From NCBI RefSeq assembly GCF_002778315.1, contig NZ_NESA01000008.1, positions 62,001 to 126,000 of the forward strand: a stretch of 64,000 bases of DNA. Reading direction: 5' to 3'. Made by a program: the position numbers and the translations under genes. Positions 9,251-26,833 of the stretch are shown piece by piece. Each line of letters starts with the position of its first letter. Position 1 is the first letter of the stretch. Under the pieces are notes generated by a model. It was not told where the DNA came from. It was given only the letters and a program-made list of their open reading frames with translations, and did not search any database. The stretch is from Limnohabitans sp. JirII-31 (lineage in GTDB: Bacteria; Pseudomonadota; Gammaproteobacteria; Burkholderiales; Burkholderiaceae_C).

Positions 9251-9850
9251 TCAGAAGCGGTAGCCGACGCCAACGCCAACCAATAAAGGATCAAGCTTCA
9301 AAGTGCCTGCGTTTGCACCGGCAGAACTGTAAACATCCGTCTTTAAGTTCACCTTCTTGACATCCAAGTTCACAGACCATTTTTTGTCGAGTGGCACATC
9401 CACACCCACCTGAAAAGCAGTGCCGAAGCTGTGGTTGTCCAGTTGATAACCCTGCAAGCTAACGCTTGAAATTTTGGTGTAGTTGATACCGGCACCGATA
9501 TAAGGCTTGTATCCGCCCAAATCAGTGAAGTGGTATTGCAGTGTCAATGTGGGGGGTAGATGCTTAAACGTCCCCAAATAAGCGCCATTGTTTGTGACGG
9601 TCTGTGACTGGGGAACAGTCAAAATCAATTCAGCAGCAACGTTCTTGTTGAAGAAATAAGAAATGTCCACTTCTGGAATTGTTTTGTTGTCAACAGCCAA
9701 ACCGAAACCAGCATTGGTCAGACTTGCGGAATTGTCATTGGCCATCTGAAGATTGACCGCACGGGCACGAACCAACCAAGGGCTTTCTTGCGCGGCCACA
9801 TGACCGACAACCAACATACCAACTGCTGCTGCGATGAGAATTTTTTTCAT
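9251..9850 (-). CDS. OmpW-family outer membrane protein (first copy)
   Basis: Predicted eight-stranded outer membrane beta-barrel of the OmpW family, usually linked to uptake of small hydrophobic molecules. A clear signal peptide (MKKILIAAAVGMLVVGHVAAQ) is followed by SPWLVRARAVNL, the canonical OmpW start. Family features include IPEVDISYFF, LPPTLTLQYHF, KPYIGAGINYT, VGVDVPLDKKWSVNLDVKKV and a C-terminal GVGYRF ending in Phe. Length 199 residues is normal. The gene lies 182 bases from a second OmpW gene on the same strand. An FNR-like box lies upstream, suggesting oxygen-dependent expression. Confidence 0.92.
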   Translation of the reverse strand: MKKILIAAAVGMLVVGHVAAQESPWLVRARAVNLQMANDNSASLTNAGFGLAVDNKTIPEVDISYFFNKNVAAELILTVPQSQTVTNNGAYLGTFKHLPPTLTLQYHFTDLGGYKPYIGAGINYTKISSVSLQGYQLDNHSFGTAFQVGVDVPLDKKWSVNLDVKKVNLKTDVYSSAGANAGTLKLDPLLVGVGVGYRF

Positions 9851-10032: not shown

Positions 10033-10623
10033 TCAGAAGCGATAGCCCAAACCCAGACTCACAACACGTGAATTGATTTTGGTGTCCACCGTTTGCCCAA
10101 ACGCAGAAATATCGGACCGAAAGTTGGAACGCTTCACATCCAAGTTCAAAGAAAAGCGGTCATCGAGCGGCACATCCAACCCAACTTGCACAGCAGGTCC
10201 CCAAGTGTGGTTGTTCATCAAAATATCTTGATAGCCCGGTGCCGTGAACGTCAAGGTGGAGCTCTTGGTGTAGGTGATCCCTGCGCCGACATAGGGCTTG
10301 AAAATCGACCAACTGTCAGCGTGGTACTGGAGCATCAATGTCGGAGGTAACTTTTGAAAGGTTCCAACAGATGTCCCATTCGCATACACCGACTGATTTT
10401 TCAGCGCCGTGTAGCCAACCTCCAGCGCCACGCGCGGCGTAAAGAAATAGCTGACATCCACCTCAGGCATAGCTTTTTGATCCACCGACATTTGGATGTC
10501 ATTGGGCACATAGCTCAACTTAGGTTGCACTGCGCGCACACGCAGCACCCAAGGGCTGTTTTGGGCCCAAGCGGTAACAAAAGATGCCGAAAAGATCACT
10601 AAAGCAACAAAAACTTTAAGCAT
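10033..10623 (-). CDS. OmpW-family outer membrane protein (second copy)
   Basis: Second eight-stranded OmpW barrel, 196 residues with signal peptide MLKVFVALVIFSASFVTAWAQ followed by NSPWVLRVRAVQP. It shares with the downstream copy the segments MPEVDVSYFF, LPPTLMLQYH, KPYVGAGITYT, VGLDVPLDDRFSLNLDVKR and a C-terminal GLGYRF, so the pair probably came from a tandem duplication that then diverged (loops and first third differ). GGAG lies upstream of the ATG at 10623 in an AT-rich leader (10624-10738). Unlike the first copy, I see no FNR box before it, so the two may be expressed under different conditions. Confidence 0.9.
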   Translation of the reverse strand: MLKVFVALVIFSASFVTAWAQNSPWVLRVRAVQPKLSYVPNDIQMSVDQKAMPEVDVSYFFTPRVALEVGYTALKNQSVYANGTSVGTFQKLPPTLMLQYHADSWSIFKPYVGAGITYTKSSTLTFTAPGYQDILMNNHTWGPAVQVGLDVPLDDRFSLNLDVKRSNFRSDISAFGQTVDTKINSRVVSLGLGYRF

Positions 10624-13823: not shown

Positions 13824-13922
13824 CCGAGGTGCTCACCTCACGTTGTCAGTGGGTGAGCGCGGTTGGGAATTAGGGTCCGAGCCTCACTGAATCTAAATCG
13901 ACTCAGCTGCAGCGCTCCTCGG
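13824..13922 (-). ncRNA. S-adenosylhomocysteine (SAH) riboswitch and expression platform
   Basis: On the minus strand, from 13922, the leader reads CCGAGGAGCGCTGCAGC, then a hairpin, then AGGCTCGG ending at 13877: the P1 arms (CCGAGG, and GGCTCGG) and the invariant GAGGAGCGCTGC segment of the SAH riboswitch family. A TAAAAT box at 13935-13930 puts the transcript start right at the core. Downstream, GCTCACC/GGTGAGC (13858-13831) can form a hairpin. CCTCGG at 13829-13824 can pair with the 5' P1 arm, and AGGCTC of P1 can pair with GAGCCT that overlaps the ahcY Shine-Dalgarno sequence. SAH riboswitches are known ON switches for ahcY; the switching route here is my inference. Confidence 0.88.
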
Positions 13923-14020
13923 TGAAGAGATTTTAGTGCAGTCTGACAACACCAAAACCGTAAATACTGGTTGCATTTTTGTTTTAACAAAAAATTCAAA
14001 AGTAATATTAAAATTATCAA

Positions 14021-15799
14021 ATGATCAATCGGCCGTTACTTTTGTTTATAAAACGTCAACTCCCTCGTGAACGGCGCAACAGCTTTGACGTCTATTACGT
14101 GTTTTTTTCGTTCACCGCCGCCGTGGGGACCACGTTGATGGCGCTCGTGATGCTCTGGCTTGAACAATCGCGTATTGCCACTTCGGCCTGGATCGGAACA
14201 CTGGTGCTGATTGGAACCCTGGTTTGGTGGACCCAGGGCCTGTCCGATTTTTGGGCTCAGACCATTTTTGAGAGCACGCTCATGTGGTTGGTGATTTACA
14301 ACTCATGGCACACGGGCGGCGTCACATCGCCGAGCATGATTTTTTTAGGCACAGTCCCCGTTCTTCCCTTGTTTTTCTCTAGCTCGCGCCGTTTTGTCTT
14401 CTTTTGGCTGTTCGTGTCGCTCGTGGGCATGCTGCTGACTCTCACCCTACAACTCAACCACCTCATCCCCATGCGCGCGGATCAAACTTGGCAAGACCTG
14501 GTGTTCAGCGCCACGATGTATGCCTTTTTGGCCTATACGCAATGGAGTTTGATAGATGCCGTGGAGTCCACCAACACCTTCACACTGCGAAAAATCAATC
14601 GATCAAACCAACGCCTACAGCGCTTGTCACACGACTTGCAGCGCGCCAACTCACACAAAGACCAGTTCTTAGCCATTGTGAGCCACGAAATGCGCACACC
14701 TTTGAACGCCGTCATGGGCTTTTTGAACCTCATGGACACCGACGAACGCATCAACCATCAAGCCAAAGAATTCGTCATAGGCGCACAAAACGCTGCGGCA
14801 CACCTACTCACGGTGATCAATGACTTGTTGGATTACTCGCAAATTCAAAACGGCAAAATCACACTCAACCCACAGACCTTCAACCTGCACACCATGCTGC
14901 ACAACACGCATGGGTCGTTGATGCCACGGGCAATTGACTTCGGGCTTTCCTACGGGCTCTACATTGATCCTCAGGTCCCTGAGTGGATCAAAGCAGACCA
15001 GCATCGCTTGACGCAAGTCCTGATCAATCTTCTTGGCAATGCCCTGAAGTTCACCGACAAGGGCCATGTCAACACCCAAGTTTATTTCGAGCCTTCCGCA
15101 AAAACACCGCAAAGCGGGACCCTGTGCGTTGATGTCACAGATAGCGGGCCTGGCATTGCACTGACGGAACAAGCCCGCATCTTCGAACCCTTCGTTCAAC
15201 TCACACGCATCGACACACGCGCCAACGCACGAGACGCCCTGCGCGGCAACGGGTTGGGTTTGAGCATCACCGACACGCTGGTCAAAAGCCACGGCGGACA
15301 ACTCACTGTGCGCAGCGCCGTCGGCCAGGGCTCGACGTTCTCATTTCGTATCCCCGTTCACATCGCGCCTGCCCCGCACAAGCCATTGCCAACCCTTGAC
15401 CGTGTGGACACCAGCGCCTTCAAACTGCTCATCGTGGATGACCATGCCGTCAATCGCTTGGTCGCCAAAGCCACACTGCAACGCGCCATGCCAAACGCAC
15501 ACATTGAAGAAGCCGAAAACGGCCTCACAGGTTTTGCCAAGATGTCCGAGACCCTTTACGACGTTGTGCTGCTCGACCTAGTCATGCCAGACATCGACGG
15601 CATTGAAGTGATGCGTCGTGTGCACAACACTTTGCCATCGCCACTCAACACAGTCCATGTGATTGCACTCACAGCCAACGTGGCCAACGAAGCGCTCATT
15701 GCCTGCAAAGAAGTCGGAATGGATGAAGTCATGTCAAAACCATTTGACCGACACACATTGGTCAATCGTGTCTTGCACTACTGCCTCAAAAACCAATGA
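14021..15799 (+). CDS. Membrane-bound hybrid sensor histidine kinase (first of pair)
   Basis: Residues 1-180 hold about six predicted membrane segments with little periplasmic sequence. Then come HisKA with phospho-acceptor His222 (IVSHEMRTPLNAVMG), HATPase with Asn340 (N box LINLLGNALKF), DSGPGI, FEPF and GNGLGLSI, and a C-terminal receiver with Asp473/Asp474, phospho-acceptor Asp519 (VLLDLVMPD) and Lys573 (SKPF). There is no DNA-binding output and no Hpt domain, so the phosphate must pass to an unlinked partner. The signal is unknown. A possible promoter (TTGTTT 13979, TAATAT 14003) would leave almost no leader, and no good ribosome binding site is seen. The stop overlaps the second kinase gene. 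Confidence 0.9.
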   Translation: MINRPLLLFIKRQLPRERRNSFDVYYVFFSFTAAVGTTLMALVMLWLEQSRIATSAWIGTLVLIGTLVWWTQGLSDFWAQTIFESTLMWLVIYNSWHTGGVTSPSMIFLGTVPVLPLFFSSSRRFVFFWLFVSLVGMLLTLTLQLNHLIPMRADQTWQDLVFSATMYAFLAYTQWSLIDAVESTNTFTLRKINRSNQRLQRLSHDLQRANSHKDQFLAIVSHEMRTPLNAVMGFLNLMDTDERINHQAKEFVIGAQNAAAHLLTVINDLLDYSQIQNGKITLNPQTFNLHTMLHNTHGSLMPRAIDFGLSYGLYIDPQVPEWIKADQHRLTQVLINLLGNALKFTDKGHVNTQVYFEPSAKTPQSGTLCVDVTDSGPGIALTEQARIFEPFVQLTRIDTRANARDALRGNGLGLSITDTLVKSHGGQLTVRSAVGQGSTFSFRIPVHIAPAPHKPLPTLDRVDTSAFKLLIVDDHAVNRLVAKATLQRAMPNAHIEEAENGLTGFAKMSETLYDVVLLDLVMPDIDGIEVMRRVHNTLPSPLNTVHVIALTANVANEALIACKEVGMDEVMSKPFDRHTLVNRVLHYCLKNQ

Positions 15800-17589
15800 T
15801 CACACGCCCTCTACTCGTCGCCATCAAGCGCGTGCTGCCTCATAAACGACGCAGCACGCTAGACATTTATTACGTTTTCTTCTCTCTGTCCGCACAAATT
15901 GCGTTGCTGATATTTGGTCCCTTGTTTTACAGCCTCGGCGAGACCGGCATCGCCATCGTCAGCATGATTGGGTTGGGTTGTATCGCCGCGAGCTTTGCTT
16001 TGTGGCTCAAAGGATTGCCCCGCTTTTGGGCGCAATCGATCGATCAAGCCACCATGATGGGGATGATTTTTTACGTTGCTTGCACAGACGGCGGTATGCG
16101 CTCTGCTGCCATGGTGTGGCTGGTGATCGTGCCCATCTTGCCCTTGTTTTCATCCAACTCACGCAAAGTGGTGAGCTTTTGGTTGTCTGTATCTTTCGGC
16201 TGCGTGGTCACCATTTTGGTTTTGCAACTCACAGGCACGATCCAATTAATCGGTCCACAGAGCTGGGGGCTGATGATCAAAGATGCCTTGATGTACTCCC
16301 TTTTGCTTTACGCGCAGTGGAGCTTGATTGATGCGGTCGACTCCATGAATGCCACCTCCTTGCGACACACCACACGCGCCAACGAAAGCCTGAAACGGCT
16401 GTCGCAAGATTTGCGACAAGCCAACGCGCACAAAGACCAGTTTCTGGCCATCGTCAGCCACGAAATGCGCACGCCCTTGAACGCTGTGATGGGCTACTTG
16501 AGCTTGATGAGTACCGACGAACGCATGAACCGCGAATCCAAAGAGTTCGTCACCGGCGCTCAAAACTCTGCGGCACACCTGCTGACTGTGATCAACGACT
16601 TGCTCGATTACTCTCAAATTCAAAACGGCAAGATCACCATGAACCCGCAGGTGTTCAACCTGCACACCATGTTGCGCACCACCCACAGCACACTGAGCCC
16701 AAGGGCCATTGATCTTGGGCTGGACTACCGCTTACACATCGCGCCGAACGTCCCTGAGTGGATCAGTGCAGACCAACACCGTCTGACCCAAGTGCTGATC
16801 AACCTGCTCGGCAATGCGCTGAAATTTACCGACACCGGCCATGTCCATATGCGAGTGTCATTCACACCGTCAAACAGCACATCGCAAAGCGGCGAACTGT
16901 CGGTCGAGGTGGAAGACACGGGGCCCGGCATCGCGCCCGAAGCACAAGCACGCATCTTCGAACCATTTGTTCAACTGACACGAACACATATTTCTGCGTC
17001 TCGGCGCGACGCACTGCGCGGCAACGGACTAGGTTTGAGCATCAGCGATACCCTGATCAAAAGTCACGGTGGCGAACTCACACTGCGCAGTGAGGTGGGC
17101 CAAGGATCGACATTTGCTTTTCACATTCCCGTGCTCTTGGCGCCCGCGCCTCAAAAAGCAGCCCCTGTCTTAGAGCGCATCGACACCACGCCCCTCAAGC
17201 TATTGATCGTGGACGACCACGCGGTCAACCGCTTGGTCGCCAAAGCCACCATACAACGCGCCTTGCCCAACGCACAAATCGAAGAGGCTGAAAACGGCAC
17301 CATCGGTCTGTCCATGATGAGCGCCAATCGGTATGACTTGGTGCTACTGGACTTGGTGATGCCAGATTTGGACGGCATCGAGGTCATGCGCCGTGTGCGC
17401 AACACCCTCCCATCGCCCTTCAAAGATGTGCACGTCATTGCGTTGACGGCCAACGTGGCAGACGACGCGCTCAAGGCCTGCAAAGACGTGGGTATGGACG
17501 AAGTCATGCCCAAACCCTTTGACCGACACACCTTGGTCAACCGCGTATTGCACTACTGCACGCCAAGCGGCTCAGAGGTCACGGCATGA
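15796..17589 (+). CDS. Membrane-bound hybrid sensor histidine kinase (second of pair)
   Basis: Paralog of the preceding kinase with identical layout: membrane region 1-180, His222 in the H box, Asn340 in the N box, receiver Asp519 and Lys573. The two proteins line up without a gap through these landmarks, so one arose by tandem duplication of the other. They are near-identical around the H box and catalytic region and differ most in the membrane part, suggesting that they sense different cues or form a heterodimer. It starts with ATGA overlap at 15796. About 75 bases of spacer separate it from prfC. Confidence 0.9.
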   Translation: MITRPLLVAIKRVLPHKRRSTLDIYYVFFSLSAQIALLIFGPLFYSLGETGIAIVSMIGLGCIAASFALWLKGLPRFWAQSIDQATMMGMIFYVACTDGGMRSAAMVWLVIVPILPLFSSNSRKVVSFWLSVSFGCVVTILVLQLTGTIQLIGPQSWGLMIKDALMYSLLLYAQWSLIDAVDSMNATSLRHTTRANESLKRLSQDLRQANAHKDQFLAIVSHEMRTPLNAVMGYLSLMSTDERMNRESKEFVTGAQNSAAHLLTVINDLLDYSQIQNGKITMNPQVFNLHTMLRTTHSTLSPRAIDLGLDYRLHIAPNVPEWISADQHRLTQVLINLLGNALKFTDTGHVHMRVSFTPSNSTSQSGELSVEVEDTGPGIAPEAQARIFEPFVQLTRTHISASRRDALRGNGLGLSISDTLIKSHGGELTLRSEVGQGSTFAFHIPVLLAPAPQKAAPVLERIDTTPLKLLIVDDHAVNRLVAKATIQRALPNAQIEEAENGTIGLSMMSANRYDLVLLDLVMPDLDGIEVMRRVRNTLPSPFKDVHVIALTANVADDALKACKDVGMDEVMPKPFDRHTLVNRVLHYCTPSGSEVTA

Positions 17590-19344: not shown

Positions 19345-19432
19345 AAAAGTCGCAAAAATATCTGCATAAATTTAAATTTTTCCTTTAAATACATATACTT
19401 AAAGGAAATGAAAAAGTCGCAAACATTTCAGC
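19345..19432 (+). repeat. Imperfect 21-base direct repeat around the Fic gene start
   Basis: The segment at 19345-19365 (AAAAGTCGCAAAAATATCTG and one more base) recurs at 19412-19432, inside the first Fic codons, with three mismatches. The repeats are 67 bases apart and flank the inverted repeat that covers the ribosome binding site. The layout suggests a local duplication of the gene's 5' end or paired binding sites. Confidence 0.6.
19379..19408 (+). promoter_or_regulatory. Inverted repeat covering the Fic ribosome binding site
   Basis: Perfect 10-base arms TTTCCTTTAA (19379-19388) and TTAAAGGAAA (19399-19408) are separated by ATACATATAC. The right arm contains the Shine-Dalgarno AAAGGA and the A of the start codon, so either an RNA hairpin hides the ribosome site or the palindrome is an operator for a repressor. 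Confidence 0.65.
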
Positions 19433-20637
19433 TCTATGACGATCTATCGCAGATGGAGCCTATGCTGCCCGGCGAGCACCGCCTTGGCCCGTTACTAGAG
19501 CGTGCGCATGACCTGATTCGAAAATCTGAACGTCTGGCAGGTTGGTGCCCATCGGGTGCCTTGCCAGGCTTGCGCCAGCTACTGAGGTCGATGAACTCGT
19601 ATTACTCCAACCGCATCGAAGGTCAGCACACGCTACCGATGGAGATCGAACAGGCACTGCGCAACGATTACGCGCAAGACCTCGACAAGGCACGCCGCCA
19701 GCGCTTGGCCTTGGCACATATGGCCACCGAAGCCCAACTCGAAACTCTGTGGCCGCAGTGGTCAGGCGCGAAGGTATGGTCCCCACAAACCGTGCAAGAC
19801 ATTCACCAAGATTTTTTTGCACGCTTGCCAGATGACGACCGCAAGCAAAACGCGCAAGGGCAGGTGCTTGTTCCTGGTGGGCTGCGCACACAACAGGTCA
19901 GTGTCGGCAAACATGCTGCACCCGACGCAACCCAACTGCCTGCATTCTTGGCGCGTTGGTCTCAGGTGTACAGCCACACCCGCCGTGGCGAAATGCAGTT
20001 GATGGCCATGGCTGCTGCCCATCACCGTCTGGCCTGGATTCACCCCTTTCTAGACGGCAACGGACGTGTGGCTCGGCTACACAGCCATCTGGTGCTGGGT
20101 CACATGGGCTTGACCAATGGCCTGTGGTCGCCGTTGCGTGGTTTTGCTCGCACACAAGACGCCTATTACGCCCACCTGGCTGCTGCCGATGAGCCCCGCG
20201 CAGGCGATCTCGACGGGCGCGGCAGCCTGAGCGAAAACGCATTGCTCAGTTGGATCGACTACGTCATCGACATTTGTATCGATCAGGTGGACTTCATGAG
20301 CCGTCTGCTGTCGCTACACGACATGAAAAACCGCATCACTGCCTGCTTGACGTACGAAGAACACGTGGTGCGCCAAGGCGTGCGCACTGAAGCCTTGCGC
20401 GCTTTGCATTACTTGTTTGCCACGCAGGCCGAACTGGATCGCGTCGACTTCAAAGCCATGCTGGGTTTAGGCGAACGTTTGGCCACCGCACAAATTTCAG
20501 CGCTGATCAAACGAGGCTTGTTACAAAGCGACACACCCTACGGCAAAGTCCGTTTTGGCGTGCCGCAGCATGCACTGCGGTTTTACTTTCCCAAACTGTG
20601 GCCGGAAGCAGAGAGCCAGAGCCACGATTCGCTGTAA
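19408..20637 (+). CDS. Solitary Fic-domain protein (predicted AMP transferase)
   Basis: Fic enzymes attach AMP (or another nucleotide part) to target hydroxyls. The active-site loop HPFLDGNGRVAR is complete at residues 212-223. An N-terminal SNRIEG at 67-72 matches the inhibitory helix motif (S/T)xxxE(G/N), so the protein is likely self-inhibited (class II) and needs no separate antitoxin; none is adjacent. The C-terminal 100 residues look helical with a possible winged-helix end (ISALIKRGLLQSDTPYGKVRF), which could let it bind its own promoter. Length is 409. It ends three bases from the convergent uvrA stop. Its AT-rich upstream region contrasts with neighbours and hints at acquisition. Confidence 0.85.
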   Translation: MKKSQTFQLYDDLSQMEPMLPGEHRLGPLLERAHDLIRKSERLAGWCPSGALPGLRQLLRSMNSYYSNRIEGQHTLPMEIEQALRNDYAQDLDKARRQRLALAHMATEAQLETLWPQWSGAKVWSPQTVQDIHQDFFARLPDDDRKQNAQGQVLVPGGLRTQQVSVGKHAAPDATQLPAFLARWSQVYSHTRRGEMQLMAMAAAHHRLAWIHPFLDGNGRVARLHSHLVLGHMGLTNGLWSPLRGFARTQDAYYAHLAAADEPRAGDLDGRGSLSENALLSWIDYVIDICIDQVDFMSRLLSLHDMKNRITACLTYEEHVVRQGVRTEALRALHYLFATQAELDRVDFKAMLGLGERLATAQISALIKRGLLQSDTPYGKVRFGVPQHALRFYFPKLWPEAESQSHDSL

Positions 20638-20640
20638 GGC

Positions 20641-23600
20641 CTAGCGCGCCAACACCGGCTTCAACGCCACGCCCGTGTGCGTGCCCAGCTTCACCACCGC
20701 TTCCGGTGTGTCAGCTGCCACGATCAAGCCACCGCCGTCGCCCCCCTCGGGGCCCAAGTCGATGATCCAGTCGGCCTCGGCAATCACATCCAGGTCGTGC
20801 TCAATCACCACCACGCTGTGACCGCCATCCACCAAACGGTGCAACACGCGAATCAGCTTGTCCACATCGGCCATGTGCAGGCCCACGGTGGGCTCGTCCA
20901 ACACGTACAGCGTGTGCGGGGCCTTGTTGCCACGTCGGGTCACGTCGTCACGCACCTTGCTCAACTCGGTCACCAGCTTGATGCGTTGCGCCTCGCCGCC
21001 ACTCAAGGTGGGTGAGGGCTGGCCCAAGGTCAGGTAGCCCAGGCCCACGTCTTTGAGCAGTTGCAGCGGGTGGCTGATGTTGGGCATGGTGGCAAAGAAG
21101 TCCACCGCCTCGTCCACCTCCATTTGCAGCACCTCGCCAATGCTTTTGCCGCGCCAGCTCACCGCCAAGGTCTCGGGGTTGAAGCGTGCGCCGTGGCAGG
21201 TCTCACACGGCACTTTCACGTCGGGCAAAAAGCTCATCTCAATAGTGCGCAAGCCTTGTCCCTCACAGGTGTGGCAACGCCCCTCGCCCGTGTTGAAGCT
21301 GAAGCGCCCGGGGCCATAGCCACGGGCTTTGGCTTCCAGCGTTTCGGCAAACAACTTGCGGATGGTGTCCCAAAACCCAATGTAGGTGGCGGGGCAGCTG
21401 CGTGGTGTTTTGCCAATCGGCGTTTGATCAACTTCCAGCACGCGGTCAATGCCCGCGTAGCCCGACACGTCGGTGCAGCCCACCCAGGTGGGGTGCTTGC
21501 CCTCGTCGTCGGCTTTGCGACCCGCTTGGGTGGTGCGCTGCGCCACCGCAGCGGCCACGTTGTGCAACAACACATCGCGGGCCAAGGTGGACTTGCCCGA
21601 GCCCGACACGCCTGTGACGGCCACCAAGCGTTTGAGGGGAATGTCCACACTCACCTCGCTCAGGTTGTGCAGAGATGCGCCTTCCAGGCTCAAAAATGTC
21701 AATGCCTCGGCATCCATGGCGCGTCGTGCTTGCAGGGGGTGGCGCATGGCGTGCAGCAAGTAGCGCCCAGTTTGTGAATCGGCTTGGTCGGTGATGTTCT
21801 TCACCGAGCCTTCGGCCATCAAACGCCCGCCACGTTTGCCGGCGCTTGGGCCAATGTCGATGATGTGGTCGGCGCGGCGAATCGTGTCTTCGTCGTGCTC
21901 CACCACCACCAAGGTGTTGCCCTTGTCGCTGAGCACATGCAGCGCGTTCAACAAAATCTGGTTGTCTCGGGCATGCAGGCCAATGGTGGGTTCGTCCAGC
22001 ACATAGCACACACCTTGCAAGTTGCTGCCCAGCTGCGCCGCCAAGCGAATGCGCTGCGCTTCGCCACCGCTGAGTGTGGGTGCACCACGGTCCAGCGTGA
22101 GGTAGCCCAAGCCCACTTGCTCCAAGAACTCCAGGCGGCTTTTGATCTCGGGCAACAGGTCGCGCGCAATGTCAGCGTCGCGTCCGTGCAAGCCCACCGT
22201 CTCGGCCCAGCGGCGCACGTCGGTCACGCTCAAGCGGGCGATCTCGGTGATGCCCACCCCTGCAAACTTCACCGCACGTGCGGTGGCGTTCAGGCGCGTG
22301 CCTTCACAGGTGGGGCAGGCGGTGTCGACCAAGTCGTCCACATCGGGCTCGGCAAAGGTTTGCTCACGGCCTTTGTCTTTGTCGTCGCGCACCGAGTCGT
22401 CCAGCACCTTGCGCTGGTCTTTGTTGAGCTTGACCCCCGTGCCCACGCAGTCGGTACACCAGCCGTGCTTGCTGTTGTAAGAGAACAAGCGCGGATCCAA
22501 CTCGGCATACGAGGTGTCACACACCGGGCAAGCGCGTTTGGTGGAGTACGCATCCAAGCGGCCAATGCTGTTGGTCTCGGCACCCGCCAGCATGGCTTCG
22601 CGCAAACCGTCCAACTGGCTCAGCACGTGCACCACGCCTTTGCCGTGCTCCAAGGCAGTGGCCAAGGCCTGGCGTAACTGCGCTTCGTTTTGGGCCGACA
22701 CCACCAGGCTTGCCACGGGCAGTTCAATGGTGTGCTCTTTGAAGCGGTCAATGCGCGGAAAGCCCGTGGTCGGCAAAAAGTGCCCGTCCACCCGCAGGTG
22801 GGTGTAGCCACGCGGGCGGGCCCAGTCGGCCAGTTCGGTGTAGACGCCTTTGCGGTTCATCACCAAGGGACTGAGCAAGCCGATGTGCTGGCCTTTGAAC
22901 TCACGCATCAGCTGCGCCGCAATGCGGTCAGGCGTTTGCGGCTGCACCGCCGCGCCATCATGCGTGCAATGCTGGGTGCCGAGTTTGACAAACAGCAAAC
23001 GCAAAAAGTGCCACACCTCGGTGGTGGTGCCCACGGTGGATTTGCGCCCGCCGCGAGACAGCCGCTGCTCAATCGCCACCGTGGGCGGAATGCCATACAC
23101 CGCGTCCACCTCGGGGCGCCCTGCGGGCTGCACAATGCTGCGCGCATAGGCGTTGAGGCTTTCCAGATAACGCCGCTGGCCTTCGTTGAACAAGATGTCA
23201 AACGCCAGCGTGGACTTGCCCGAACCCGACACACCCGTGATGACGTTGAACTTGCCGCGCGGGATGTTGACGCTCAAGCTCTTGAGGTTGTGTTCTTTGG
23301 CGTTGATGATTTGAATGCTGCCCTCATCAGAAGAGGATCCGCCCACACCCGCTGCCGAAGTCGTCGGTGTGCCGGCCAACGATCTTGCGCGTGCGTAGGA
23401 GGCGCCCGGCATACCGGCTGCTGCGGCAGCAGCGAACCGAAGCGCGCCTTCTGCGGCCTTCAACCCGACCGAAGGCTTGGCCACCTCGTACACCACGCCC
23501 ATCGATTCGGCATAGTCACGCAAGGCCTTGCCGGTGTGTGAGGTGGGGTGCAAACGCACTTCCTCTGGCGTGCCCTCGGCTACCAACAAGCCACCGGCCT

Positions 23601-26514
23601 CGCCACCTTCAGGCCCCAGGTCAATCAGCCAGTCACTGGCGCGAATCACGTCGAGGTTGTGCTCAATCACGATCAACGAGTTGCCGTCTTCCAACAGGCG
23701 GCGCATGGCGCGCATCAGTTTGGCAATGTCGTCAAAGTGCAGGCCGGTGGTGGGTTCGTCAAACAAGAACAGCACGCCTTTTTTGGCGGTGGCTTGGCGA
23801 CTTGCTGTTTTGCTTTTGGCGGCTTCGGCCAAGAAGCCCGCCAGCTTCAGTCGCTGGGCTTCGCCGCCGCTGAGGGTGGGCACGGGTTGGCCCAGTTTGA
23901 CGTAGTCCAAGCCCACGTCGACGATGGGTTGCAGGGCACGCACGACGTCGCGGTCGTTGGCAAACAGCTCTAGGGCTTCGCCAACGGTGAGGTCCAACAC
24001 ATCGGCCACGTTCAGTGATCTTCGCGTCGTGACTGCGGGCGCACCGTCTTGCTCCTCTTCGCTTCGCTCAGAATGTCGCTGCGTCGGCACGCCCACAGCC
24101 CCGCCACGAAGTTCGCGCTCGAGGGTAATTTCTAAAATTTCGGGTCGGTAGCGTTTGCCGTTGCAATCTTGGCAGCGCAAATACACGTCGCTCAAGAACT
24201 GCATTTCCACATGCTCAAAGCCCGAGCCACCGCAGGTGGGGCAACGGCCGTCGCCGCTGTTGAAACTGAACTTCGACGCGGTGTAGCCGCGCTGTTTGGA
24301 CATGGGCAACACCGCAAACAACTCACGCACGGCGTCCCACGCACCGACGTAACTCGCCGGGTTGGAGCGTGCGGTTTTGCCAATGGGCGACTGGTCCACA
24401 AACACCACATCGCTGAGGTGGTCAGCGCCCAGCAAGCGGTCGTGTGCGCCTGGGGTTTCGGTGGCGCGGCCAAAGTGGCGCATCAAGGCCGGCGTCAGCA
24501 CGTCTTGAATCAGGGTCGATTTGCCCGAGCCGCTAACGCCCGTCACACAGACCAGGCGTTGCAGCGGGAACTCAATGAACAGGTTTTGCAGGTTGTGCTC
24601 GCGCGCGCCCTCCAAAATCAAACGCGGGGTGCTGTCGGTGACCAAGCGCTTGAGCCCTAGGCCAATGGTTTTGCGCGCACCCAGGTAGGCGCCAGTCAAG
24701 GTGTCGGCCGACTTCAAAGCTTCGGGCGTGCCATCGAACACAATGCTGCCGCCGCGCACACCGGGGCCGGGGCCCATGTCCAAGATGCGGTCGGCGCACA
24801 GCATCACCGCCGGGTCGTGCTCCACCACCACCAAGGTGTTGCCTGCATCGCGCAAGCGCAACATGGCCAGGTTGATGCGGTGCATGTCGCGCGGGTGCAA
24901 GCCAATGCTGGGCTCATCAAGCACAAACAAGGTGTTGACCAAGGAGGTGCCCAAGGCCGTGGTCAGGTTGATGCGCTGTACCTCACCGCCACTCAGGGTG
25001 CGGCTTTGTCGGTCCAGCGTGAGGTAGCCAATGCCTACCTCGCTGAGGTACTTCAAGCGGGTGCGAATTTCTTCCACCAGCAAATGCAGGGCTTGCGCAT
25101 CGGTGCCTGCGGCATCCACCTGCACGGCATGGAAGAACTGGTGCAGTTTGTCGATGGGCATCAACATCAGGTCGTGCAAACACAGTCCCGGCATGGCTTC
25201 GAGTTGCTCGCGCGTCCAGGTCACGCCCTGGGGCATGAAGCGTTTGTCGGGTTTCATCACCGCATCGGCGTTGTCTTTGCTGCCAATGCGCCACAACAGG
25301 CTGTCGGTTTTCAGGCGCGCGCCACCGCACACGCCGCATGGGGTGTAGCTGCGGTATTTGGAGAGCAACACACGGATGTGCATCTTGTACGACTTGCTCT
25401 CCAGGTATTCAAAGAAGCGCTTGATGCCGTACCACTGGTGGTTCCACTTGCCCTTCCACAAGGGCGAGCCTTGAATCACCCAGTTCTTTTGGGCCTCACT
25501 CAGCTTGGACCAGGGCGTGTCACGCGGAATGCCTTCGGCCTCGGCGTGACGCATCAGGTCGTCCTGGCATTCTTTCCAGGCGGGCGTCTGAATGGTTTTG
25601 ATGGCACCAGAGCGCAAGGTGAGCTTGTCGTTGGGAATGACCAAGCCGTAGTCGACCCCAATCACACGACCAAAGCCACGGCAGGTTTCACAGGCACCGA
25701 CCGCCGAGTTGAACGAAAACATCGACGGGATCGGATCGCTGTACCGCACATCGCTGTCTGGGCAATGCAAGCCGGTGGAGAAGCGCCACAAAGACACATC
25801 GGTGCCCTCCCCCCAATACACATTCAGTCGCCCACTGCCGCGTTTGATGGCCAGCTCAATGGCCTCCACCACCCGGGCCTGCTCGGTGTTGCCGAGCCGG
25901 AAGCGGTCAGCCACCACATCCAGCAGCTTGCGTGGGCCGGTGGGCGTGGCCACTTCGCGCTCGGCATGCACGCGCGTGAAGCCACTGGCGCTGAGCCACT
26001 GCGTCACCTCGTCGGCGGTGGTGTTGGCCGGCAACTCGACCGGAAAGGTCAAGATCAAGCGCGGGTCTTGCGGGAGCGCCGCGCAGCGCCGTTGCAGTTC
26101 GGCGTAAATGGTTTGTGGCGTGTCGTGCTGAACGGGCTGCGCGGTTTGGCGGTCAAACAACTGACCGGCGCGGGCGATGAACAACTTCAGGTGGTCGTTC
26201 AGCTCGGTCATGGTGCCCACCGTAGAGCGAGAGCTGCGCACGGGGTTGGTTTGGTCAATCGCGATCGCGGGCGGCACACCGTCGACCTTGTCGACAGCTG
26301 GGCGGTCCATGCGGTCTAAAAACTGTCGTGCGTAGGCGCTGAACGTCTCCACATAGCGGCGCTGGCCTTCGGCATACAGGGTGTCAAAGACCAGACTCGA
26401 TTTGCCCGACCCGCTGGGGCCGGTAACCACCGTCAGCTCGCCGGTGCGGATATCGAGGTCAAGATTTTTAAGGTTGTGCTGGCGTGCGCCACGGATGCGA
26501 ATGGAGCCTGACAT
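20641..26514 (-). CDS. uvrA: Double-length UvrA-family protein with four ABC ATPase modules
   Basis: UvrA detects DNA damage and loads UvrB in nucleotide excision repair. The start is ATG 26514 (MSGSIRIRGARQHNL), giving about 1957 residues, twice the usual 940. Four Walker A sites (GPSGSGKSS, then GVSGSGKST three times) and four signatures (LSGGEVQRINL, LSGGEAQRLKL, LSGGEAQRIRL, LSGGEAQRIKL) are present, so it is two UvrA units in one chain. Zinc-finger cysteine pairs (CPTCGGSGFEH; CHTCEGQGLR) occur in both halves. An Ala/Ser/Gly-rich linker lies near residues 1020-1065. An odd insertion sits near residues 800-835. No LexA-type box is seen upstream. Whether it replaces or supplements a normal UvrA is unknown here. 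Confidence 0.9.
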   Translation of the reverse strand: MSGSIRIRGARQHNLKNLDLDIRTGELTVVTGPSGSGKSSLVFDTLYAEGQRRYVETFSAYARQFLDRMDRPAVDKVDGVPPAIAIDQTNPVRSSRSTVGTMTELNDHLKLFIARAGQLFDRQTAQPVQHDTPQTIYAELQRRCAALPQDPRLILTFPVELPANTTADEVTQWLSASGFTRVHAEREVATPTGPRKLLDVVADRFRLGNTEQARVVEAIELAIKRGSGRLNVYWGEGTDVSLWRFSTGLHCPDSDVRYSDPIPSMFSFNSAVGACETCRGFGRVIGVDYGLVIPNDKLTLRSGAIKTIQTPAWKECQDDLMRHAEAEGIPRDTPWSKLSEAQKNWVIQGSPLWKGKWNHQWYGIKRFFEYLESKSYKMHIRVLLSKYRSYTPCGVCGGARLKTDSLLWRIGSKDNADAVMKPDKRFMPQGVTWTREQLEAMPGLCLHDLMLMPIDKLHQFFHAVQVDAAGTDAQALHLLVEEIRTRLKYLSEVGIGYLTLDRQSRTLSGGEVQRINLTTALGTSLVNTLFVLDEPSIGLHPRDMHRINLAMLRLRDAGNTLVVVEHDPAVMLCADRILDMGPGPGVRGGSIVFDGTPEALKSADTLTGAYLGARKTIGLGLKRLVTDSTPRLILEGAREHNLQNLFIEFPLQRLVCVTGVSGSGKSTLIQDVLTPALMRHFGRATETPGAHDRLLGADHLSDVVFVDQSPIGKTARSNPASYVGAWDAVRELFAVLPMSKQRGYTASKFSFNSGDGRCPTCGGSGFEHVEMQFLSDVYLRCQDCNGKRYRPEILEITLERELRGGAVGVPTQRHSERSEEEQDGAPAVTTRRSLNVADVLDLTVGEALELFANDRDVVRALQPIVDVGLDYVKLGQPVPTLSGGEAQRLKLAGFLAEAAKSKTASRQATAKKGVLFLFDEPTTGLHFDDIAKLMRAMRRLLEDGNSLIVIEHNLDVIRASDWLIDLGPEGGEAGGLLVAEGTPEEVRLHPTSHTGKALRDYAESMGVVYEVAKPSVGLKAAEGALRFAAAAAAGMPGASYARARSLAGTPTTSAAGVGGSSSDEGSIQIINAKEHNLKSLSVNIPRGKFNVITGVSGSGKSTLAFDILFNEGQRRYLESLNAYARSIVQPAGRPEVDAVYGIPPTVAIEQRLSRGGRKSTVGTTTEVWHFLRLLFVKLGTQHCTHDGAAVQPQTPDRIAAQLMREFKGQHIGLLSPLVMNRKGVYTELADWARPRGYTHLRVDGHFLPTTGFPRIDRFKEHTIELPVASLVVSAQNEAQLRQALATALEHGKGVVHVLSQLDGLREAMLAGAETNSIGRLDAYSTKRACPVCDTSYAELDPRLFSYNSKHGWCTDCVGTGVKLNKDQRKVLDDSVRDDKDKGREQTFAEPDVDDLVDTACPTCEGTRLNATARAVKFAGVGITEIARLSVTDVRRWAETVGLHGRDADIARDLLPEIKSRLEFLEQVGLGYLTLDRGAPTLSGGEAQRIRLAAQLGSNLQGVCYVLDEPTIGLHARDNQILLNALHVLSDKGNTLVVVEHDEDTIRRADHIIDIGPSAGKRGGRLMAEGSVKNITDQADSQTGRYLLHAMRHPLQARRAMDAEALTFLSLEGASLHNLSEVSVDIPLKRLVAVTGVSGSGKSTLARDVLLHNVAAAVAQRTTQAGRKADDEGKHPTWVGCTDVSGYAGIDRVLEVDQTPIGKTPRSCPATYIGFWDTIRKLFAETLEAKARGYGPGRFSFNTGEGRCHTCEGQGLRTIEMSFLPDVKVPCETCHGARFNPETLAVSWRGKSIGEVLQMEVDEAVDFFATMPNISHPLQLLKDVGLGYLTLGQPSPTLSGGEAQRIKLVTELSKVRDDVTRRGNKAPHTLYVLDEPTVGLHMADVDKLIRVLHRLVDGGHSVVVIEHDLDVIAEADWIIDLGPEGGDGGGLIVAADTPEAVVKLGTHTGVALKPVLAR
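24013..24110 (-). repeat. REP-like repeat inserted in frame in uvrA
   Basis: Between the conserved segments ITLERELRG and NVADVLDLTVGEAL the protein reads QRHSERSEEEQDGAPAVTT, which has no counterpart in ordinary UvrA. The underlying DNA (CATTCTGAGCGAAGCGAAGA on the minus strand, about 24054-24073) resembles the dispersed extragenic elements whose translation gives HSERSEE. I read it as a small repeat that landed in frame. No second copy is evident in the window. Confidence 0.55.
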
Positions 26515-26597
26515 GGGGCGGGGTCTTTCTAATGTGCCCAAGCATTCTAGGTAGCCCCACCTCACCCAGCGCGCACCCAGGGCATTGCTTTGCCCCA

Positions 26598-26628
26598 TAA
26601 AAAACGCCGCAGCAAAGCTACGGCGTTT
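26598..26628 (-). terminator. Rho-independent terminator after the small membrane protein gene
   Basis: On the minus strand AAACGCCG and CGGCGTTT form the stem around an 11-base loop, followed by a T-run (AAAAAA at 26599-26604 on the plus strand). It lies 22 bases after the stop of the small membrane protein gene and upstream of uvrA. Confidence 0.8.
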
Positions 26629-26650
26629 GCACAAAGCATCAGGCCCTGCG

Positions 26651-26833
26651 TTACTTGGCAGCAGAGGCCTCGGCCACCGGGGCAGACGCCGCACCAGACG
26701 CGGCCTCAGCAGGCGCATGCACAGCATCTTCACCATGCTTTTCGCCGCCCATGTCCAAACTGTTGCCACCTTTCATGATGACAAAAATGGCCAGCGCCGC
26801 AAAGATGATGAAGCCAATGAGAATTTTCAACAT
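26651..26833 (-). CDS. Small single-span membrane protein of unknown function
   Basis: Sixty residues: an N-terminal membrane segment (MLKILIGFIIFAALAIFVIMK) and an Ala/Glu-rich tail (EAASGAASAPVAEASAAK) probably outside or loosely structured. I place the start at ATG 26833 because GGAG lies seven bases upstream; the TTG at 26839 is too close to it. The gene is bracketed by its own terminator and by that of the upstream transporter gene, supporting a real short transcript. I do not recognise the family; short proteins of this form near uvrA occur in Comamonadaceae as far as I recall. Confidence 0.7.
   Translation of the reverse strand: MLKILIGFIIFAALAIFVIMKGGNSLDMGGEKHGEDAVHAPAEAASGAASAPVAEASAAK

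What the first reader, a model, noticed from the sequence alone, without database searches (positions are those of the whole stretch)
14021..17589. Tandem, translationally coupled hybrid histidine kinases that align without gaps
Two hybrid kinases overlap by 4 bases and keep His222, Asn340, Asp519 and Lys573 at identical residue numbers, so the second is a duplicate that has stayed colinear. The membrane regions have diverged much more than the kinase cores. Neither has a DNA-binding partner or Hpt protein nearby. This looks like a two-sensor module, perhaps a heterodimer, feeding an unlinked phosphorelay. The signal and output are unknown.
Basis: partly seen in the sequence, partly recalled or inferred. 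Interest (0 to 1): 0.6.

Follow-up and report, generated by a model that had tools for sequence, protein, structure and literature searches.

The report
Coupled pair of membrane sensor kinases
Two overlapping genes encode matching membrane sensor kinases; the relatives compared keep only one, two of them carry the stub of the lost copy, and genome comparison suggests that such sensors report to one shared relay protein and a DNA-binding regulator encoded elsewhere.

Summary
In detail: A (14021-15799, 592 aa) and B (15796-17589, 597 aa) overlap as ATGA, align without internal gaps (382/592 identical) and share H222, N340, D519, K573. Gaplessness is a family trait, also true of single-copy orthologues.

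The pair is not conserved: 23 of 23 relatives whose upstream flank is visible have one kinase at the same ahcY/prfC site. Nor is it recent: A branches outside B plus five relatives' genes (A+B sister rejected, p-AU 8.7e-5), and two relatives hold a 40/43-codon stub that starts like A (31 and 33 of 39 nt) and still overlaps the next gene as ATGA. So A is old and was lost there.

The genome has two more tandem pairs of this architecture, whose first and second genes form two old clades. The sensor part models as six helices resembling cyclase anchors, a receptor type interchangeable with quorum sensor CqsS (PMC4821796). The genome has one Hpt over cut-off; this Hpt, an HTH_17-receiver regulator and these kinases co-occur, though from few independent events. 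A CqsS-LuxU-LuxO-like relay is likely; heterodimers are untested.

The parts
14021..15799 (+). Gene A: six-helix membrane domain, HisKA (213-278), HATPase_c (326-446), receiver (470-584); 592 aa hybrid histidine kinase, absent from the same site in the 23 relatives judged
   Evidence: ORF, Pfam, synteny, motifs
15796..17589 (+). Gene B: same architecture, 597 aa; orthologue of the single kinase that relatives carry between ahcY and prfC
   Evidence: ORF, Pfam, synteny, trees
15796..15799 (+). ATGA overlap: start codon of B inside the end of A
   Evidence: sequence; the stub ORFs of G084 and G085 end in the same ATGA overlap
14021..14665 (+). N-terminal 215 residues of A: six long helices, the last running on toward HisKA
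   Evidence: AlphaFold2 model, pLDDT 85.6, pTM 0.72; structural comparison
15796..16440 (+). N-terminal 215 residues of B: same six-helix arrangement
   Evidence: AlphaFold2 model, pLDDT 84.1, pTM 0.72; structural comparison
14021..14059 (+). First 39 bases of A, the stretch kept as a stub in front of the single kinase of G084 (31/39 identical) and G085 (33/39); B's own start matches those stubs at 16/39 and 19/39
13996..14020 (+). 25 bases upstream of A, nearly identical upstream of the stubs in G084 and G085; presumed 5' leader of the operon
   Evidence: sequences printed; no sigma-70-type match found in the region

Best explanation
A and B are two intact receptor kinases of a six-transmembrane-helix hybrid kinase family that is widespread in this genus. 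The pair arose by an old tandem duplication; B is the copy kept elsewhere and A the extra copy, lost from sister lineages (directly shown for G084/G085 by the stub). How it works: each kinase senses a signal within or near the membrane through its six-helix bundle (inferred from fold), autophosphorylates on H222 and passes the phosphate to its own D519 (inferred from intact motifs). Because neither has an Hpt domain, the phosphate goes to an unlinked Hpt protein (the only one over cut-off in the genome, G000:C1:649149-649508, between dapC and smc) and from it to a DNA-binding receiver protein, most likely the HTH_17-receiver protein at G000:C4:29429-30049 (inferred from co-occurrence and gene neighbourhood). 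A and B, and the four kinases of two further tandem pairs, would then be parallel inputs into one relay, in the manner of CqsS, LuxPQ and LuxN into LuxU and LuxO. Shown: anatomy, synteny, age and loss of A, recurrence of tandem pairs. Inferred: phosphate route, regulator identity, signal class.
For: Age and loss of A: synteny, gene tree with B+G084+G085+G031+G096+G097 apart from A (100/99; 99/97), A+B sister rejected (p-AU 8.7e-5), species tree grouping G000 with the same five genomes (98/99), stub of A with retained ATGA overlap in G084 and G085 (0 of 2000 shuffles each). Relay: one Hpt over cut-off in G000. Over 84 genus genomes kinase/Hpt present-present 55, kinase only 5, Hpt only 6, neither 18; kinase/regulator 53, 7, 4, 20; the NarL-type regulator P0005 used as control shows no association. 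Outside the genus, the only one of 118 genomes with the kinases at E<=1e-72 (G193, again a tandem pair at the parB site) also has the best Hpt match and the best regulator match among those 118. Regulator beside A-like kinase in G061, G073, G104; beside kinase-like ORFs in 6 of 16 loci holding its more distant relatives. Fold: the seven best VIA-align matches for both A and B are ImcA, AC9 and Rv1625c entries. CqsS-LuxU-LuxO hub and CqsS/Rv1625c interchange: passages of PMC3310172 and PMC4821796.
Against: The co-occurrence rests on few independent events: on a tree of 75 of the 84 genomes the kinase trait changes 4 times, and sign tests are not significant. Exceptions among genomes at least 90% complete: G030 kinase and Hpt without regulator; G023 and G076 Hpt match (inside 599-641 aa frames) and regulator without kinase at these thresholds; G017 kinase and a 37% regulator without Hpt; G029 and G087 weak Hpt only. 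G108 has an Hpt at the dapC/smc site but neither kinase nor regulator. The kinase threshold and the limited number of scored candidates per genome can hide members. Foldseek alone gives no match at E<=0.001 (best 0.46), and the tool warns that Z below about 13 can mean only a common arrangement in helical proteins. No experiment bears on phosphotransfer.
Confidence: 0.5

Rival explanations
1. Heterodimer module: A and B are made in equal amounts by coupled translation and work mainly as an A-B heterodimer, one subunit tuning the other (as recalled for RetS and GacS).
Against: B-type kinases stand alone at this site in 23 of 23 relatives judged, so B does not need A. No dimer prediction was possible with these tools. 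One search counts mostly the P2/P3-type pairs, not A/B.
Confidence: 0.3
2. A is a local duplicate of B that evolved fast (relaxed or positive selection) and only looks old; the pair has no joint function.
For: A has a longer end branch than B (0.39 against 0.097); only G000 has the pair among 84 genus genomes searched.
Against: A+B as sisters is rejected (p-AU 8.7e-5); the stub in G084 and G085 matches A and not B (31 and 33 of 39 against 16 and 19), so A existed before those lineages split; all catalytic motifs of A are intact.
Confidence: 0.08
3. A is a xenologue: a second allele of this site's kinase acquired from an unsampled lineage of the genus and inserted in front of B, later deleted in some descendants.
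For: No relic of A was found upstream of the kinase in G031, G096, G097, G022 or G066, so A need not be older than the G000/G084/G085 ancestor by that evidence; A falls just outside the clade of six genomes.
Against: Base composition of A (GC 53.4, third positions 66.1) is close to B (55.1, 69.2); no A-type gene was found in another genome.
Confidence: 0.25
4. No Hpt relay: the receivers of A and B act directly by binding a partner protein, or act as phosphate sinks or on another regulator such as the universal NarL-type protein P0005.
For: Hpt and regulator have exceptions to co-occurrence and few independent events; other orphan hybrid kinases exist in the genome.
Against: P0005 is present in 22 of 24 genus genomes without these kinases, so it is not specific; full receiver motifs.
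Confidence: 0.25

Closest known systems
Vibrio CqsS-LuxU-LuxO quorum-sensing relay (with LuxPQ and LuxN)
   Same: Six-transmembrane hybrid kinase without its own Hpt; several hybrid kinases converge on one unlinked Hpt and one DNA-binding regulator (convergence: passages of PMC3310172; six-helix design: passages of PMC4821796).
   Different: Regulator here would be HTH_17-receiver, not LuxO; kinases come in tandem pairs; signal unknown; sequence relation of the membrane parts to CqsS was not tested; transfer not shown.
Six-helix membrane anchors of adenylyl cyclases (Rv1625c/Cya, AC9)
   Same: Predicted fold: Z 11.4 (rmsd 2.9 over 130) for B and 10.4 (rmsd 5.9 over 164) for A against Rv1625c; Z 12.0 against AC9 for both.
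   Different: Output is a histidine kinase, not a cyclase; sequence identity in the aligned parts 15% or less; Foldseek gives no significant match.
TorS / ArcB / BarA type hybrid kinases
   Same: HisKA-HATPase_c-receiver core; TorS is the best NCBIfam match (281.5 and 309.6 bits).
   Different: Far below the equivalog cut-off (676.5 bits) and match begins at residue 206-207, so the sensor part is unrelated.
RetS-GacS and other interacting hybrid kinases; Roc system
   Same: Two related sensor kinases feeding one output (recalled; PMC4866733 and PMC12051241 seen only as search listings).
   Different: Not tandem coupled paralogues with the same six-helix sensor; interaction here untested.

Membership tests
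Hybrid histidine kinase | HisKA, HATPase_c and receiver domains in one chain with phospho-acceptor His and Asp | tested here: met
   Pfam over cut-off in A and B; H222 and D519 with surrounding motifs
Hybrid histidine kinase | kinase activity and intramolecular His-to-Asp transfer | not testable with these tools
   needs purified protein
CqsS-type quorum receptor kinase | six-helix membrane sensor joined directly to HisKA | tested here: met
   predicted models with six long helices, pLDDT 84.1 and 85.6; prediction only
CqsS-type quorum receptor kinase | sequence homology of the membrane part to CqsS | not tested
   no CqsS sequence was compared
CqsS-type quorum receptor kinase | unlinked Hpt acceptor | tested here: inconclusive
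   one Hpt over cut-off in the genome, co-occurring with the kinases; transfer not shown
CqsS-type quorum receptor kinase | lipophilic autoinducer as ligand, with a synthase | not tested
   no synthase search was made
Six-helix cyclase-anchor fold | membrane domain superposes on Rv1625c/AC9 | tested here: inconclusive
   top matches for both models, but Z 10.4-12.4 is in the range that may be common for helical proteins and Foldseek is not significant
TorS equivalog | NCBIfam curated score 676.5 | tested here: not met
   281.5 and 309.6 bits
Conserved tandem kinase module at ahcY/prfC | two kinases at the site in relatives | tested here: not met
   one kinase in 23 of 23 relatives with visible upstream flank; stub of A in two of them

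The most novel reading that the evidence does not exclude
The genus carries an undescribed multi-sensor hub: several six-helix, CqsS/adenylyl-cyclase-anchor-like hybrid kinases, repeatedly organised as coupled tandem pairs with distinct first and second members, all feeding one Hpt and one HTH_17-receiver regulator, possibly a quorum or lipid-sensing circuit; when one partner is lost, its start is kept as a short coupled leader for the survivor.
Probability: 0.3. Interest if true: 0.65.

Novelty: new variant of a known kind. Interest (0 to 1): 0.42.

Why it matters
If right, a ubiquitous genus gains a testable signalling circuit with named parts on different contigs: sensors, one Hpt, one regulator. 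The six-helix sensor class is of wide interest because its ligands are mostly unknown, and cyclase anchors of this design have been shown to take a CqsS receptor in their place (PMC4821796, abstract and passages). The A stub in two relatives is a small natural experiment in the loss of one partner of a coupled pair, with the overlap to the survivor kept. The A/B pair alone would be a modest finding.

Tried and rejected
Recent local duplication: rejected by tree, AU test and stubs. Gene conversion between A and B: no block in which A and B share residues against G084/G085 in excess; B=G084/5 sites outnumber A=B sites in windows 1-300, and the counts are small and similar after that, so weak local conversion in the kinase part is not excluded. 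Relic of A's 3' end in the stubs: not detectable (A's last 45 bases, 1272 and 1358 of 2000 shuffles as good), so the deletion's far end is unknown. Relic of A in G031, G096, G097, G022, G066: none found. The NarL-type orphan regulator P0005 as specific output: present in 76 of 84 genomes with or without the kinases. Phylogenetically independent co-occurrence: not significant. Promoter scan upstream of A: no sigma-70-type match (expected 1.6 by chance). Foldseek against PDB: nothing at E<=0.001. NCBIfam: generic kinase families only, below cut-offs. Papers: ten searches listed no paper on these kinases or on this relay; that is a statement about those searches only, in an open-access library. 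Limits: the genome search scored only 11-21 kinase candidates a genome; many relatives are incomplete MAGs; the P3 loci that I fetched (10 relatives) were picked because one search showed two adjacent hits, so cannot serve as an unbiased count of pairs, which is why one search was made on a fuller but capped list.
Full report
What is there. A (14021-15799) and B (15796-17589) are hybrid histidine kinases of 592 and 597 aa with the order membrane part, HisKA, HATPase_c, receiver. They overlap by ATGA and align with no internal gap; 382 of 592 residues are identical, 40% in the membrane part and 75-86% in the kinase and receiver domains. All phosphotransfer motifs are intact in both. The window lies in a 3.48 Mb, 44-contig genome, G000. 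Its nearest named relatives in the public set are metagenome-assembled Comamonadaceae or Burkholderiales; the genus name was not given by any tool.

The site in relatives. The pair stands between ahcY (with an SAH riboswitch, 13848-13924 on the minus strand) and prfC. In 25 relatives an A/B-type kinase was found beside ahcY and/or prfC. In 23 the ahcY side is visible and there is exactly one kinase; in 22 of these prfC is visible too; in the other two relatives (G013, G028) the contig breaks in the gene. Among 84 genus genomes searched, 58 have an A-type match at E<=1e-70, counting the other subfamilies. The nearest genes are 81% (G084) and 79% (G085) identical to B; A reaches 62% with both. 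So B is the orthologue and A the extra copy.

A is old and was lost. The gene tree puts A outside B, G084, G085, G031, G096 and G097 (100/99; 99/97). Trees with A and B as sisters are rejected (log-likelihood 74.6 lower, p-AU 8.7e-5; A's branch is long, and the test shares the model's weaknesses). The species tree from MetF, TlyA, AhcY and PrfC groups G000 with those five genomes (98/99). Direct evidence comes from the gap upstream of the single kinase in G084 and G085: an ORF of 40 or 43 codons begins where A begins, matches A's first 39 bases at 31 and 33 positions (B's at 16 and 19), is preceded by nearly the same 25 bases, and ends in an ATGA overlap with the kinase. None of 2000 shuffles of either gap scored as high. 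The two ORFs differ by three codons, so the frame was kept. The same records appear as named contigs L098 (MJ1_bin-1164) and L099 (A1_bin-239) and show the same ORFs. Nothing of the kind was seen in G031, G096, G097, G022 or G066. A's 3' end is not recognisable in the stubs. Retention of start, frame and overlap suggests that coupling from A's start helps express the survivor; that is inference.

Tandem pairs recur. The same genome has two more tandem pairs of this architecture, at parB (L027) and between gpx-like and glcF genes (L026). In the tree, their first members (P2a, P3a and relatives) form one clade (100/99) and their second members another (96/93); A/B lie elsewhere. So this heterotypic pair is old and was itself duplicated, and A/B is a separate case. 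Of 57 genus genomes with a match to P3b at E<=1e-85, 47 have at least one same-strand pair less than 500 bases apart in the listed, capped rows, 58 pairs in all; contig ends can hide partners. In the 10 relatives whose parB site was fetched the order parB-P3a-P3b-oxidase is kept; they had been picked for showing two hits.

Where the phosphate may go. Neither kinase has an Hpt domain. The genome has two Hpt matches at E<=0.1, one over cut-off (32.4 bits), a 120 aa protein between dapC and smc. Of the 27 receiver matches I looked at orphan regulators and took two forward: an HTH_17-receiver protein (P0004) and a NarL-type protein (P0005). In 84 genomes: Hpt 61, P0004 57, kinases 60 (match), P0005 76. 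Kinase/Hpt 55-5-6-18 and kinase/P0004 53-7-4-20 (both, kinase only, other only, neither); kinase/P0005 shows no association (Fisher p 1.0). Among 44 genomes at least 90% complete: 27-1-4-12 and 27-1-2-14. Fisher values ignore ancestry. On a tree of 75 of the 84 genomes the absences fall mostly in three clades that lack all three parts; kinase changes 4 times, Hpt 10, P0004 7, and sign tests on independent pairs are not significant. Exceptions are listed in the Against line.

Beyond the genus, of 118 genomes of other genera only G193 has kinases at E<=1e-72, as a tandem pair at the parB site, and G193 also has the best Hpt (1.2e-10; 6 of 118 have one) and the best P0004 match (1.1e-66; 12 of 118 have one at 1e-30). 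Its Hpt is not beside smc. G108 has the Hpt at dapC/smc without the rest. In G061, G073 and G104 a P0004-type gene lies near an A-like kinase: about 1.7 kb away with one gene between in the first two, and in G104 with a receiver-only gene and one ORF between. Of 16 loci holding P0004 relatives in other genera, 6 have a kinase-like ORF next door (L240, L242, L246, L249, L252, L253) and 3 more a receiver-like ORF only (L241, L244, L248) (rough ORF calls, 1.5 kb flanks).

The sensor. Models of the first 215 residues of B and A (12-sequence alignments) have six long helices and good confidence. VIA-align ranks ImcA, AC9 and Rv1625c entries first to seventh for both (Z 10.4-12.4), with unrelated helical proteins at 8.5-8.8 next. 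That ImcA is a six-helix diguanylate cyclase is recalled. Foldseek alone is not significant, so the fold link is suggestive. In PMC4821796 (abstract and passages) the CqsS receptor, of the same six-helix design, could replace the Rv1625c anchor and confer regulation by CAI-1. In PMC3310172 (passages) CqsS, LuxPQ and LuxN converge on LuxU.

Verdict. The heterodimer reading is open. The two-sensor, unlinked-phosphorelay reading gains support but is not shown. The pair at this site is a survivor of an old duplication, not a conserved module and not a fresh duplicate. Kind: a new variant of a known kind.

Noticed in passing
window 13848-13924 (-): SAH riboswitch (RF01057, 53 bits) in front of ahcY, inside the gap shared with gene A.
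   Followed up: yes
window 20641-26769 (-): A 2042 aa UvrA-like ORF, about twice the usual length, with two UvrA_inter stretches; beside a Fic-domain gene at 19408-20637.
   Followed up: partly
window 9251-9850 and 10033-10623 (-): Two neighbouring OmpW-family genes; both are found in several relatives at the same place.
   Followed up: no
L083 1451-3230: Repeat-bearing ORFs that look like a CRISPR array, near ORFs at 188-1449 that look like cas1/cas2, a few kb from the kinase and HTH_17 regulator of G073; judged by eye only.
   Followed up: no
G007, G014, G091, G099: These genomes show three tandem pairs each of the same kinase architecture, a lineage-specific expansion.
   Followed up: no
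L159 2998-7227: A separate three-gene cluster in the same genome: a 917 aa hybrid kinase with several receivers, a 126 aa receiver and a 358 aa receiver protein.
   Followed up: no
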